A stretch of 64,000 bases of DNA, from positions 62,001 to 126,000 of the forward strand of contig JAJPIM010000008.1 of assembly GCA_021324775.1 (NCBI GenBank). Direction: 5' to 3'. The translations under genes were made by a program, and so were the position numbers. This document shows positions 57,758 to 63,429 of this stretch, piece after piece. The stretch comes from Gemmatimonadota bacterium (GTDB lineage Bacteria > Gemmatimonadota > Gemmatimonadetes > Gemmatimonadales > Gemmatimonadaceae). Each line of letters opens with the position of its first letter. Within the stretch, counting starts at the first letter, position 1. The notes under the pieces are model-generated. The model searched no databases. It saw only the letters and a program-made list of their open reading frames with translations, and was not told the DNA's origin.

Positions 57758-57863
57758 CTGATTTCCTCGGCCGACAGGAAAGTGGCGGATCTCCAGGCGC
57801 GGGGCCCGTGCAGGAGGTCCAACATTATACAGCCTCTGATACGGTGTGTGGGCTGGCTTGGGC

Positions 57864-57883
57864 GGGCCGGTCGCGACCGGCCC
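57864..57883. repeat. 20-bp perfect palindrome
   Basis: GGGCCGGTCGCGACCGGCCC. Confidence 0.9.
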
Positions 57884-57892
57884 CTACCAGGG

Positions 57893-58018
57893 ACGAATTC
57901 TGATCGCTGCGCGGGCATCAATCGGCGGCCACAGACGAATTCTGATCGCTGCACGGGCATCAATCGGCGGCCACAGACGCAATTCTGAGCGTCGCCCGGG
58001 CATTGAACGGGCGACAAA
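57893..58018. repeat. 42-bp tandem repeat, two near-identical units plus a degenerate third
   Basis: acgaattctgatcgctgcRcgggcatcaatcggcggccacag x2 (57893-57934, 57935-57976), then acgcaattctgagcgtcgcccgggcattgaacgggcgacaaa. Confidence 0.9.
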
Positions 58019-58033
58019 GGGGCGACCGGCGAC

Positions 58034-58921
58034 GTGACGTTTCGGGACGTGCTGATACCACAGTCGCGTGCAGACGACGCGCACAGCGGTGCACGACACA
58101 ATGGTGCGCCGAAGAAGGCCGGTGCGTCCGCCCACAGTGCCGCGGGCCGGCCGGTCCCGCCCGTCCTGGTTTATCACAAGGTCGAGTGCCGGAACGAGTT
58201 CGGCGTCACGCGGCTCTCCCCGCGGCGCTTCGCCGGACAGATCGAAGCGTTGGCCGTTGGCGGCTGGCGAACACTGACGCTGAACGAGCTGGCGGCAGTA
58301 TTGGCGGGGACGCGGGCGGCGGGACCGCGTGAGGTCGCGATCACATTCGATGATGCCTACCGCGGACTCAGGGACTACGCCTTTCCGGCGCTGGCGGATG
58401 CCGGTTTCACGGCGGCGTGCGCCGTGATCACTGAGTACGCGGGCCGGCTCAACCGATGGGACGTGGCCATCGGTGGCCGGCGGTTCGCGCATCTCGCGTG
58501 GCGCGACATCGCGCGATGGCATGGGCGCGGCATCGAGTTCATCTCGCATACCGCGACGCACCCGCGGCTGTCGTGGCTCGAGGCGGATCAGGCCGCGTTG
58601 GAACTCACGCGGTCGCGCACGATGCTGGAGATGGTACTCGGCGCGCCGGTCCAGGCCATAGCGTATCCATATGGGGCGGCGGGACCCCGAGAGCGTGAGC
58701 TGGCGCGTGCGGCAGGCTACAGACTCGGATTCGCGGTACTCTCGCGGTGGCGCGGCGATGTGCTGGCGGTACCGCGCACGCCGGTTTACCCGTGGTCCAC
58801 GTCGCCGCCGGTCGCCGGACCGTGGGGTGTGCTCGAGCGGTCCGCGGCGCAGATTGTCACTCGCGGGTCGTTCGTGGGTGCCATGTGGCGCCATGCACAT
58901 TCTGCCAGCCCGCGTACCTGA
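58034..58921 (+). CDS. Polysaccharide deacetylase family protein
   Basis: VLVYHKVE; VAITFDDAYRGLRDYAFPALADAGF; EFISHTATHPRLSWL. Confidence 0.9.
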   Translation: MTFRDVLIPQSRADDAHSGARHNGAPKKAGASAHSAAGRPVPPVLVYHKVECRNEFGVTRLSPRRFAGQIEALAVGGWRTLTLNELAAVLAGTRAAGPREVAITFDDAYRGLRDYAFPALADAGFTAACAVITEYAGRLNRWDVAIGGRRFAHLAWRDIARWHGRGIEFISHTATHPRLSWLEADQAALELTRSRTMLEMVLGAPVQAIAYPYGAAGPRERELARAAGYRLGFAVLSRWRGDVLAVPRTPVYPWSTSPPVAGPWGVLERSAAQIVTRGSFVGAMWRHAHSASPRT

Positions 58922-58936
58922 CCGGACCTCTGGCCG

Positions 58937-60463
58937 GTGCTCCGGCCAGGGGGGCTGGATGACGTGACCCGCGGGATTCGCCGTGCGTCAGCCAGTGTGC
59001 ACTGTCTCGGACTGAATTCGAAAGCGCCAGCGCGCCTGGCCGGCCGGCCGCAGAGCGCAGCTCCCGGGCGGCTGATCGTCCGGGTAGCGTTGGCCATCGC
59101 GCTCGCCGCCGGGGCCCTGATTTCGCAGCCCGGCGTGGCCATGTCACAGGCGGAACTCGCCGGTGCGTCATCGCGCGTGACCGACATGCGCGAGATGGCC
59201 ATGTTCCATAACTCGAATGCGTACGTATGGATCCGTGCGACCGATGCAGGCACGGTCCTCGTGTACGCATCCGTGAATTATCGTAATGCGTTTGCGCAGC
59301 CCGTCGCGCTGACGACGGACGAAGCCGACAAGTGGGCGGCGCTGGCGGAGCCCCTGACGGCCGACAGCCTGCGGATCATGGCGGCGCGGCGAGACCGGCC
59401 CGACACGACATCGACGCGCGACAACCTCGCGCTCGGCGACTTCGTCCTGCTGTCGCGGCCGGGAACCGATCCACCGTCGCTCACCGTCAAGATCGGCGCA
59501 CTCGGGCCCGGCGGCGTGACGACGACGTTCCTCGCTCCAAACCTCGGATCACTGGCGCAAGCGGTGCGCGAAGCCGCCCAGGCGGCACGCGAGATGGCGG
59601 CGAACCGCGCTGCCGACAGCACGGCCAGAGCGGCATCGCTCGCTGCCGCCAGCATGCCGGCGCAGCAGGTGCCGTTGGCGGTGGCGGAGCCCGCACCGGC
59701 GCCCGCGGATTCCTCATCGGCCGCACCTCCGATACCGGTGGTGCCCGCCGCCGGCCCGATCGCGCTTGCGAGCCTCGCCGCGCCCGTCGCGACCGCACCG
59801 GCCGTGAACCTGGCCCTGCGTCCGCTGCCGGCACCTGCCAAGGTGCGCGTCAGGGCATACGCGGCGTCCCCCTCGCACGCGGCTCCGCCAAGCGCGGGCA
59901 CGACCGTGGTGAGTGTCCGTTCGGCGCCGCCGCCGGCAACGGTCGCAATCGTGGCGACGACGACACCCATCATTCCGTCCACGCCAGCGGCACCGGCGTC
60001 CGCAACACCGGCGCCGGTGCCAGCCGCGCCTGCGCCGGCTGTGCCGCCCCCGTCGGCCACGCCACCTGCGGCGCCCGCTCCGGCGCCGGTTGCACCAAAG
60101 ACGGTGGCGGCCGCGCCAACTCCGCCTCCGGCGCGTGCGCTATCTGATTCCGGAGCGCTGTCGGATGGCGGATTGTCCGACGATGAGTTCACGACGGAAG
60201 TGCATCGCCGCGAATCGACGATGACGGGGTGCTATGCCCAGTATGGGCTCAGCGCCAATCCGGCGCTGCGTGGCCGCGTGACCGTCCGCATCTCGCTCAG
60301 CGACTCGGGCGAAGTCATGCGCGCGACAGTCGTCGACCGGAGCTGGACCGCGGCGGTCCCGACGGAGGTGGAATCCTGCATCGTCCATCGCGTGTTCGTC
60401 TGGCATTTCCCCGTGGCCCGGCGAAGCAGCATCCACGATTACACCGTGATCTTCGGCCACTAG
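58937..60463 (+). CDS. AgmX/PglI C-terminal domain protein with Pro/Ala-rich linker
   Basis: Low-complexity PA-rich middle; C-term STMTGCYAQYGLSANPALRGRVTVRISLSDSGEVMRATVVDRSW. Confidence 0.7.
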   Translation: MLRPGGLDDVTRGIRRASASVHCLGLNSKAPARLAGRPQSAAPGRLIVRVALAIALAAGALISQPGVAMSQAELAGASSRVTDMREMAMFHNSNAYVWIRATDAGTVLVYASVNYRNAFAQPVALTTDEADKWAALAEPLTADSLRIMAARRDRPDTTSTRDNLALGDFVLLSRPGTDPPSLTVKIGALGPGGVTTTFLAPNLGSLAQAVREAAQAAREMAANRAADSTARAASLAAASMPAQQVPLAVAEPAPAPADSSSAAPPIPVVPAAGPIALASLAAPVATAPAVNLALRPLPAPAKVRVRAYAASPSHAAPPSAGTTVVSVRSAPPPATVAIVATTTPIIPSTPAAPASATPAPVPAAPAPAVPPPSATPPAAPAPAPVAPKTVAAAPTPPPARALSDSGALSDGGLSDDEFTTEVHRRESTMTGCYAQYGLSANPALRGRVTVRISLSDSGEVMRATVVDRSWTAAVPTEVESCIVHRVFVWHFPVARRSSIHDYTVIFGH

Positions 60464-60619: not shown

Positions 60620-60752
60620 TTCGACCCTGATGGCAGGTTATCAGCGGTCTTCGACCGAGAGTATTTGTTTTCGACTTCGACTCTGATACCTTGATTGTCG
60701 ACCAGGAGTGGAAATTAGAGCTTCTTTTCGACCAAAATTAGGAGTTTTCGAC
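60620..60752. repeat. Phased TTCGAC array upstream of fic
   Basis: TTCGAC at 60620, 60650, 60670, 60676, 60727, 60747 plus GTCGAC at 60697. Confidence 0.85.
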
Positions 60753-60779: not shown

Positions 60780-62312
60780 ATGGTTGATCGCGCCGGAACC
60801 TTTCAGGAGAAGACGGTCCCGCCGGACACAAGGCTGGCGGGGTGGGCTTTCCTCGTCCACACTTTTGGCGTCCGGGCGCCCATCCGCCGCCCAAGCGCCG
60901 TCTCCGGACAGCACGTGAAGGCGAGCCGCCGGGAGGAGGAGGGCTGGACCGTCTTCGACAAGCGGTATTGGCCCGGCGAAACCTTCGGCGACCAGCTGAG
61001 CTTTGCGCTGCGCCATGAGGACGTCGACTTGCTCGTCCTGAAACGGCTGTTCGAAGCCGTACCGGCGGACACCGTCGCCGCCTTCGTCCGCAGCGCTCCA
61101 ACCGGCGTCCCCAACCGGCGCGCCTGGTTCCACTATGAATTCCTGACCGGCCGGACGCTCGACGTTCCCCACGCGAAGGCGGGTTTTACCGATCTGCTCG
61201 ATGGCAGCCGTTACTTCACGGCGGCGCCGCTTCTCTCCCGCCGCCACAAAGTGCGCGACAACCTGCTCGGGAATCGTGATTTCTGTCCAATCATTCGTAA
61301 GACAAAAGCGCTGACCGATTTCGGCGCGCGCGCGCTTGGGGCGAAGGCGAAGGACATCATCGGACGCACCGGCGCGAACGTCGTTGCGCGCGCGGCGAGC
61401 TTTCTCTTGCTTGCGGACAGCCGCGCCAGCTTTGAGATCGAGGGCGAGAATCCGCCGCGCAACCGCCTTGAGCGGTGGGGCCGAGCCGTGCTGCAGGCCG
61501 GAAAGAAAAAGCTGACGCTCGATGAAATCGTGCGTCTACACGCCGTGCTTATCGAGGACACGCGCTTTACGAGGGCAGGCCTGCGCCTAGACGGTGTCTT
61601 CGTGGGGGAGCGCGATCACGAAGGCGATCCGCTGCCGGAATTCGTCGGCGCGCGCCCGCAGGATTTGCAGACGCTGATGGCCGGAATGATCGCCGCGAAC
61701 GAGCGCATGCACGGCGGAGAACTCGACTCCGTGCTCCAGGCGGCCGCGACCGCGTTCGGCTTCGTCTACATCCACCCGTTCCAGGACGGCAACGGGCGGC
61801 TGCATCGCTGCCTGATTCATCACGTCCTGGCGGAGCGGAAATTCACGCCGCCGGGGATGGTGTTCCCGGTCTCGCCCGTGATGCTCGACCGCATCGACAC
61901 CTACCGCGACACGCTGCGTGCGCATTCGGGTCCGCTGATGGACTACATCGAATGGCGGCCGACGCCCGAGCGGAATGTCGAGGTGCAGAACGACACGGCC
62001 GACCTTTACCGTTATTTCGACTGCACAGGGGCGGCGGAGTTTCTCTATGCCTGCGTCGCGCAGGCGGTCGACAAGGACCTGCCGCGGGAGATCAACTTCC
62101 TCCGCCGAAACGACGAGGCGATGCGGCGCATTATGAACGCGGTCGAGATGCCGGACAGGATGGCGGAGAACCTGGTCAGGTTCATCCGCCTGAACGAAGG
62201 CAGGCTGGGCCGCAAGCGGCGCGAGGGCGAATTCGCAAAGCTGGCCGACGATGAGGTGGCGTCGATCGAGGCCATCGTGCGGGAAGCGTTTGAGGGAGAC
62301 GAGGGCCAGTAG
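60780..62312 (+). CDS. Fic family protein
   Basis: HPFQDGNGRLHR Fic motif; SRASFEIEGENPP matches the (S/T)xxxE(G/N) inhibitory motif; ATG 60780 preferred over GTG 60708. Confidence 0.95.
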   Translation: MVDRAGTFQEKTVPPDTRLAGWAFLVHTFGVRAPIRRPSAVSGQHVKASRREEEGWTVFDKRYWPGETFGDQLSFALRHEDVDLLVLKRLFEAVPADTVAAFVRSAPTGVPNRRAWFHYEFLTGRTLDVPHAKAGFTDLLDGSRYFTAAPLLSRRHKVRDNLLGNRDFCPIIRKTKALTDFGARALGAKAKDIIGRTGANVVARAASFLLLADSRASFEIEGENPPRNRLERWGRAVLQAGKKKLTLDEIVRLHAVLIEDTRFTRAGLRLDGVFVGERDHEGDPLPEFVGARPQDLQTLMAGMIAANERMHGGELDSVLQAAATAFGFVYIHPFQDGNGRLHRCLIHHVLAERKFTPPGMVFPVSPVMLDRIDTYRDTLRAHSGPLMDYIEWRPTPERNVEVQNDTADLYRYFDCTGAAEFLYACVAQAVDKDLPREINFLRRNDEAMRRIMNAVEMPDRMAENLVRFIRLNEGRLGRKRREGEFAKLADDEVASIEAIVREAFEGDEGQ

Positions 62313-62355: not shown

Positions 62356-63429
62356 TCACTTCGCCGCCTCTGCGAACAACCGTCCATATTCGCCGTAGCC
62401 TTCCGCGGCGAGCTGGTTCGCCGGGATAAAGCGCATGGCTGCCGAGTTCATGCAGTAGCGCAGTCCAGTTGGCTCGGGGCCATCATCGAAGACGTGGCCG
62501 AGGTGTGAGTCCGCGTGCGCCGAGCGAACTTCGGTGCGATCCATGCCGATCGAGTTGTCGGTGCGCGTCACGACATTGGCCGGCACGAGCGGTTTCGTGA
62601 AACTGGGCCATCCGGTCCCCGACTCGAACTTGTCGAGAGAGCTGAAGAGTGGTTCGCCGGACACCACATCGACGTAGATGCCCGGCTCGTGGTTGTCCCA
62701 GTACTGGTTGCGAAAGGGTAGTTCGGTGTCGTCGTGCTGCGTGACCGAATACTGGATCGGAGTCAGGCGCTGCTTCAGCTCCGCATCGGCGGGCTTGCGC
62801 CACGCGGAGAAGTCGTGAGCATTGCCAACGGGGCGGGCGGCGGCAGTGTGTTCGTGCGCGGCTTCATCGAGCAGCGTCGCGACGACTTGTTCTTCCTGGT
62901 CGTACGCGCCCTCGCCGAAGAAGTGATAGCGAATCCGGCCATGCGTATCCACGATGTAGATGGCCGGCCAGTACTCGTTGCTGAACGCATTCCAGATCCG
63001 GTTGTTGCCATCGATGGCGACCGGGTAGACAACGCCGAGCTCGTGGACGGCATTGCGCAGGTTGGATTCGACGCGCTCGTGCTCCAGCTCCGGCGTATGC
63101 ACGCCGACGACGACCACGCCGCGATCGCGGAACTTGGCTTCGAGCGCCTTGACGTGCGGCAAGGCGGCGAGGCAATTGCTGCACGAGAACGCCCAGAAAT
63201 CCACGACCACCACGTGGCCGCGCAGCCCCGCCGCCGTGAGCGCCGGCGAGTTGATCCAGCCAGTGTTGCCATCGAAACCGGGGAATGGGCCTTCGTCCTT
63301 GAGCGGCGCCGCGGTGTGCGCGCCCAAGTGCGCCGGCGGTGCTGCCGAATGCGAGCGAGTCGCGACGAGGGCCAACCCACCGCCGGCAGTCAGTGTGGTG
63401 GCCGCGAGCAGCGAGATGATACGGATCAT
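62356..63429 (-). CDS. TlpA-like thioredoxin fused to methionine-R-sulfoxide reductase MsrB
   Basis: N-term [21 protein letters not shown]-term [24 protein letters not shown]...[29 protein letters not shown]. Confidence 0.95.

What the first reader, a model, noticed from the sequence alone, without database searches (positions are those of the whole stretch)
60620..60752. Helically phased TTCGAC array upstream of the Fic gene
Six exact TTCGAC hexamers plus one GTCGAC lie in 133 bp before the fic start. Main-site starts are 60620, 60650, 60670, 60697, 60727 and 60747, giving spacings of 30, 20, 27, 30, 20. The triplets (60620/60650/60670) and (60697/60727/60747) repeat with a 77-bp offset, and flanking sequence is partly alignable, suggesting a degenerate tandem duplication that kept the TCGAC cores. 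Spacings near multiples of 10 bp would put the sites on one DNA face. This looks like a cooperative operator for autoregulation or silencing of a Fic AMPylase, possibly horizontally acquired. The region is also less GC-rich than its surroundings.
Basis: seen in the sequence. Interest (0 to 1): 0.65.

Follow-up and report, generated by a model that had tools for sequence, protein, structure and literature searches.

The report
Conserved self-operator array before fic gene
A row of six matching DNA sites in front of a Fic (AMP-transferase) gene is conserved in spacing across several bacterial phyla, while its letters change together with the Fic protein, so it is probably the docking array with which this mobile enzyme gene switches itself off.

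Summary
Six TTCGAC plus one GTCGAC lie at the stated places; 0 of 200,000 local-composition simulations gave six in 133 bp. Related fic genes (22 loci, 56-100% protein identity, Acidobacteria and Alphaproteobacteria) nearly all carry the same array with the same 30-20-27-30-20 spacing, the last site usually abutting the start codon and sites 3 and 4 lying over a -35/-10 pair. Across 98 upstream regions of the wider family, self-similarity peaks at lags 20, 50 and 30 bp (129, 91 and 83 hits against 8-9 expected); flanking DNA shows no excess at 20 or 50. The spacing is conserved, but the site letters differ by Fic subclade (TTTTCGAC, TTTTTCATG, GTGAC..TTTGGCAG, GGTGA..TTGTAC, TACGACA), and one genome holds two fic paralogues with different arrays. 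One array found by pattern alone stood before a broken fic remnant. No neighbour gene is shared. Best reading: a self-contained autorepressor module in which the Fic protein binds its own multi-site operator. Binding is inferred, and the DNA-binding domain is unknown (N-terminal domain weakly AbiEi-like; basic C-terminal segment). 'One DNA face' and 'tandem duplication' are not supported. Nearest precedent: CccR.

The parts
60620..60625 (+). site 1, core TTCGAC
   Evidence: same position in the relatives' arrays
60650..60655 (+). site 2, core TTCGAC (+30)
60664..60692 (+). putative promoter: -35 TTTGTT (60664-60669), 17-bp spacer holding site 3, -10 TACCTT (60687-60692)
   Evidence: inferred from position; clear in relatives (TTGATT-17-TATGAT in L029, TTGATT-17-TATGCT in L030); too weak in the window for the consensus scan
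60670..60675 (+). site 3, core TTCGAC (+20)
60676..60681 (+). extra TTCGAC touching site 3, not in the conserved lattice
60697..60702 (+). site 4, core GTCGAC (+27)
60727..60732 (+). site 5, core TTCGAC (+30)
60747..60752 (+). site 6, core TTCGAC (+20); in most close relatives this copy abuts the start codon
60780..62312 (+). fic gene from ATG 60780 (510 aa); in-frame alternatives GTG 60708 and CTG 60762
   Evidence: Pfam Fic PF02661 E=5.3e-15; start choice from relatives
60801..61154 (+). N-terminal domain, residues 8-125, confident fold, weakly AbiEi-like
   Evidence: pLDDT about 80-94; top PDB fold hit Rv2827c E=0.3; profile P=0.0024, reversed control 0.56
61428..61445 (+). inhibitory helix motif SFEIEG, N-terminal to the Fic motif (class II)
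   Evidence: alignment A1 and 95-member alignment
61773..61808 (+). Fic active-site motif HPFQDGNGRLHR
62172..62249 (+). basic C-terminal segment, residues 465-490, candidate DNA contact
   Evidence: family mean net charge +12.3 per 100 aa; conserved QNxG...R...F

Best explanation
The array is the autoregulatory operator of the fic gene. The Fic protein (class II, with an N-terminal inhibitory helix, an unassigned N-terminal domain and a basic C-terminal tail) binds about 16-bp bipartite sites arranged head to tail at 20/30-bp steps. The sites cover the promoter (site 3 on the -35/spacer, site 4 at the -10/start region) and the leader up to the start codon, so filling them shuts off transcription. 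The gene and its array move together as one self-contained module, and protein specificity and site letters change together. Shown by sequence: the array, its spacing, conservation, tight linkage to fic, co-divergence, and lack of partner genes. Inferred: that Fic itself is the binder, that the effect is repression, and that binding is cooperative.
For: Same array and spacing upstream of homologous fic genes in other phyla. Pooled lag peaks 20/50/30 bp in 98 upstream regions against Markov nulls; flanks show no excess at 20 or 50; 21 of 22 close loci and 50 of 63 loci at 40-50% identity exceed the 99% null. All sites of a locus share one core, and the core differs between subclades; the TTCGAY class falls within one clade of 22 with full support. 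Same genome, two paralogues, two different arrays (L039 and L055), which argues against a shared host regulator. In 12 carrier genomes the TTTCGAY triple pattern hits only the array upstream of fic. An array found by pattern alone in a genome without a fic hit proved to precede about 20 N-terminal codons of a broken fic. No shared neighbour gene. Precedent: CccR, a Fic protein, represses its own promoter (PMC9755527).
Against: No binding experiment. No recognised DNA-binding domain: Pfam finds only Fic, fold hits are weak. Direct repeats are unusual for a symmetric dimer. Some subclades with very GC-rich upstream DNA (e.g. L127, L128, L131) and most very distant members (under 40% identity) show no clear array. 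The window's own -10/-35 and start codon are weak.
Confidence: 0.75

Rival explanations
1. A separate host-encoded regulator or silencer (not Fic) binds the array and controls fic.
For: Fic has no recognised DNA-binding domain by Pfam; the array is AT-rich in GC-rich DNA, as targets of silencers can be; MucR genes lie near fic on two plasmids.
Against: The array travels with fic between phyla without a shared neighbour; core letters differ by Fic subclade, even between two paralogues in one genome; in checked carrier genomes the TTTCGAY triple occurs only at fic, whereas a host regulator would be expected to have other targets.
Confidence: 0.15
2. The array activates fic, or acts as a switch, for instance with Fic or another protein recruiting polymerase from the upstream sites.
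For: Two sites lie upstream of the -35.
Against: Sites 3-6 lie on and downstream of the promoter, where bound protein should block transcription; the precedent CccR represses (PMC9755527).
Confidence: 0.06
3. The repeats serve DNA replication, partition or transposition (iteron-like) and only happen to lie near fic.
For: Direct repeats at near-helical steps resemble iterons; many carriers are plasmids.
Against: Arrays are fixed to the fic start codon, lie on chromosomal contigs too, are solitary in the genome and are not linked to rep, par or transposase genes.
Confidence: 0.02
4. Chance or composition artefact.
For: TTCGAC is slightly enriched in the window.
Against: 0 of 200,000 simulations; spacing conserved across phyla.
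Confidence: 0.01

Closest known systems
CccR of Yersinia pseudotuberculosis (Fic protein that represses its own promoter; PMC9755527)
   Same: Class II Fic protein whose own promoter carries repeated sites near -35/-10; autorepression shown there by EMSA, footprint and reporter.
   Different: CccR is shorter (380 aa) with a C-terminal HTH and one inverted pair AGATAATCAT-N26-ATGATAATCT; here an extra N-terminal domain, six direct repeats in a 20/30 lattice reaching the start codon, and subclade-specific cores.
AbiEi / Rv2827c (type IV antitoxin autorepressors; PMC3985639)
   Same: Weak similarity of the N-terminal domain to the AbiEi C-terminal domain; multi-site autorepression.
   Different: No AbiEi winged helix found, no AbiEii partner, inverted rather than direct repeats in AbiEi operators; homology not established.
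Phd/Doc type II toxin-antitoxin modules
   Same: Fic-fold enzyme and autoregulated promoter.
   Different: No antitoxin gene next to fic; the inhibitory motif is inside the Fic protein.
Direct-repeat binding regulators such as BldC (PMC5859096; title and abstract seen only)
   Same: Cooperative multimer binding to direct repeats, as proposed here.
   Different: BldC is MerR-like and not an enzyme; no sequence relation tested.

Membership tests
Fic/AMP-transferase family, class II | Fic domain with HxFx(D/E)GNGRxxR motif | tested here: met
   HPFQDGNGRLHR at residues 332-343; Pfam Fic E=5.3e-15; most motif residues at least 95% conserved in 95 members
Fic/AMP-transferase family, class II | inhibitory (S/T)xxxE(G/N) motif N-terminal to the Fic motif | tested here: met
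   SFEIEG at residues 217-222; S217 and E221 at least 95% conserved
Fic/AMP-transferase family, class II | AMP transfer activity | not testable with these tools
   needs enzyme assay
CccR-like Fic autorepressor | own promoter carries repeated binding sites overlapping -35/-10 | tested here: met
   sites 3 and 4 over the promoter in relatives
CccR-like Fic autorepressor | inverted-repeat operator with long spacer | tested here: not met
   sites are direct repeats
CccR-like Fic autorepressor | C-terminal HTH domain | tested here: inconclusive
   no Pfam HTH; helical basic C-terminus in a low-confidence model
CccR-like Fic autorepressor | protein binds and represses its own promoter | not testable with these tools
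   needs EMSA and reporter
AbiEi type IV antitoxin | AbiEi C-terminal domain | tested here: inconclusive
   no Pfam hit; fold hit E=0.3; hhalign probability 12%, P=0.0024
AbiEi type IV antitoxin | AbiEii nucleotidyltransferase partner gene | tested here: not met
   no shared neighbour gene in 26 loci
Phd/Doc type II toxin-antitoxin | antitoxin gene adjacent to the Fic-fold toxin | tested here: not met
   fic stands alone (annotated plasmid loci)

The most novel reading that the evidence does not exclude
A large, mobile, single-gene family in which one polypeptide is both an AMP-transferase and a sequence-specific repressor binding head to tail on a fixed 20/30-bp lattice, with many mutually different recognition sequences that evolved together with the protein; its N-terminal domain may descend from type IV antitoxins, making a fused self-repressing toxin/antitoxin-like chain.
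Probability: 0.3. Interest if true: 0.75.

Novelty: new variant of a known kind. Interest (0 to 1): 0.62.

Why it matters
It shows from sequence alone that a widespread Fic subfamily, known to Pfam only by its Fic core, very probably controls its own synthesis through a strict multi-site operator, and it offers a natural series of operator/protein pairs with different specificities. That makes testable how a Fic enzyme reads DNA, whether AMPylation activity or the inhibitory helix is coupled to operator binding, and how protein and operator change together without losing control. I found no description of it in the paper library searched.

Tried and rejected
Tandem duplication of 77 bp: rejected, flanks not above neighbouring offsets. 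All sites on one DNA face: rejected at 10.5 bp/turn. Translation from GTG 60708: unlikely, close relatives start after the last site. Phage or viral cargo: no family member in the phage records and none confirmed in viral contigs. Conserved operon partner: none; apparent shared ORFs are mainly shadow frames within fic or pairs of near relatives. Identifying the DNA-binding domain: Pfam, NCBIfam and PDB sequence searches gave only the Fic core; the full-length model was poor (mean pLDDT 58); the N-terminal model gave only weak AbiEi/Rv2827c hits. Consensus promoter scan of the window found none. Paper searches gave nothing on such an array.

Full report
Observation. Window-wide TTCGAC is only mildly enriched (61 vs 43.8), but the cluster is not chance: 0 of 200,000 simulated sequences of local composition had six copies in 133 bp. 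GC falls to 45% in a 66.5% GC window.

Footprint in close relatives. A genome-collection scan with the Fic protein gave 14 loci from Acidobacteria, Alphaproteobacteria and others. Upstream of the intact ones the same array stands, as TTTTCGAC or TTTTCGAT, with spacings 30-20-27-30-20 or very near it, and the last copy usually touches the start codon. A well-formed promoter is visible in several: in L029 TTGATT, 17 bases, TATGAT, with site 3 in the spacer and site 4 just after the -10. In the window the corresponding hexamers are weak (TTTGTT, TACCTT; one search finds no consensus promoter), and the relatives' start position has no start codon, so ATG 60780 is the likely start.

Wider family. 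Further loci came from whole-genome searches and plasmids. The gene is scattered (16 of 249, 12 of 199, 32 of 385, 27 of 200 and 6 of 199 genomes), as expected of a mobile accessory gene; the window copy groups with Acidobacteria copies at full support inside an otherwise mostly alphaproteobacterial clade. For 98 deduplicated upstream regions I counted self-matches at each lag without assuming a motif: lags 20, 50, 30, 49 and 29 stand out (129, 91, 83, 68, 60 against 8-9 expected), while 186 flanking stretches show mainly codon-type multiples of three and no excess at 20 or 50 (their lag 30, itself a multiple of three, is 41 against 21). A chain search (its spacing bonuses were chosen after seeing the lags, but applied equally to shuffles) puts 21 of 22 close members and 40 of 51 at 44-50% identity above the 99% level of shuffled sequence; under 40% identity only 1 of 10.

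Letters change with the protein. Within each locus the sites agree; between subclades they differ: TTTTCGAC here, TTTTTCATG/CAGG in a large sister group, GTGAC..ATTTGGCAG (L051), GGTGA..TTGTAC (L067), TAATCG..GGCGACA (L071), TAATC..TTTCCACA (L070), GTGAATGATTTTCGCG (L075), and TACGACA in L085, inside the TTCGAC clade, where all six sites have changed in step. The TTCGAY class lies within one fully supported clade of 22; 17 of 22 of the loci at 56% identity or more have four or more TTCGAY, against none of 63 loci at 40-50% identity. One genome (G241) carries two paralogues, L039 with TTCGAC sites and L055 with TTTTTCA sites. This is hard to explain by a shared host regulator and fits recognition by the Fic protein itself.

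Specificity. In 12 genomes that carry close members, the TTTCGAY triple pattern occurs only at the array upstream of fic (five of the 12, including the window's own, have no hit at this strict setting). In 385 alphaproteobacterial genomes a TTTCGAC triple with loose spacing occurs at 12 places in 10 genomes; three of these hits lie at known fic genes (G530, G873). Another with exact 30/20 spacing (G797) had no fic hit, but reading it showed a start codon and about 20 family-like N-terminal codons followed by a break: a fic remnant predicted by its array. Three more places (G541, G542, G566) were compared with the family proteins and had no family member near; the remaining places I did not examine.

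Protein. It has the Fic motif and the class II inhibitory motif. Residues 8-125 fold confidently; the best PDB fold match is Rv2827c (E=0.3) with AbiEi lower in the list, and a profile comparison with AbiEi C-terminal domains gives P=0.0024 (reversed control 0.56). This is a lead, not a family assignment. Residues 465-490 are basic (+12.3 per 100 residues). Which part reads DNA is open.

Mechanism. Fic accumulates, fills the array over the promoter and leader, and shuts its gene off; copies moved to a new host bring their own control. CccR provides the precedent that a Fic protein represses its own promoter (PMC9755527), but with an inverted pair and a C-terminal HTH. Phd/Doc and AbiE membership fail on the missing partner gene.

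Limits. No binding or expression data; the 'cooperative' and 'repressor' steps are inferred; very distant members and some GC-rich subclades show no clear array; the phylum of the window's genome was not determined.

Noticed in passing
window 62356-63429, - strand: Protein joining a thioredoxin-like domain with an MsrB (SelR) methionine sulfoxide reductase domain, directly downstream of fic on the other strand.
   Followed up: no
window 58937-60463, + strand: 508-aa ORF with a long Ala/Pro-rich middle and no Pfam match, ending just upstream of the array.
   Followed up: no
window about 57850-58040: Short near-exact tandem repeat visible in overlapping ORF translations (repeated NSDRC.GINRRPQT / PPIDARAAIRIR).
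   Followed up: no
genome G922, C15:50936-50997: A different TTCGAC direct-repeat array with about 18-19-bp steps (GTTCGACTCATTTTTGTCA), not at the known fic copies.
   Followed up: no
L153 (G797:C67), array at 1691-1747 on the - strand: Family array followed by only about 20 family-like codons of fic, then a break: array outlasting its gene.
   Followed up: partly
loci with TTTTTCATG arrays, e.g. L048: The last two operator sites lie inside the fic coding sequence and encode a conserved N-terminal peptide (GPVTVFHERRLPE-like), so coding and operator are superposed.
   Followed up: partly
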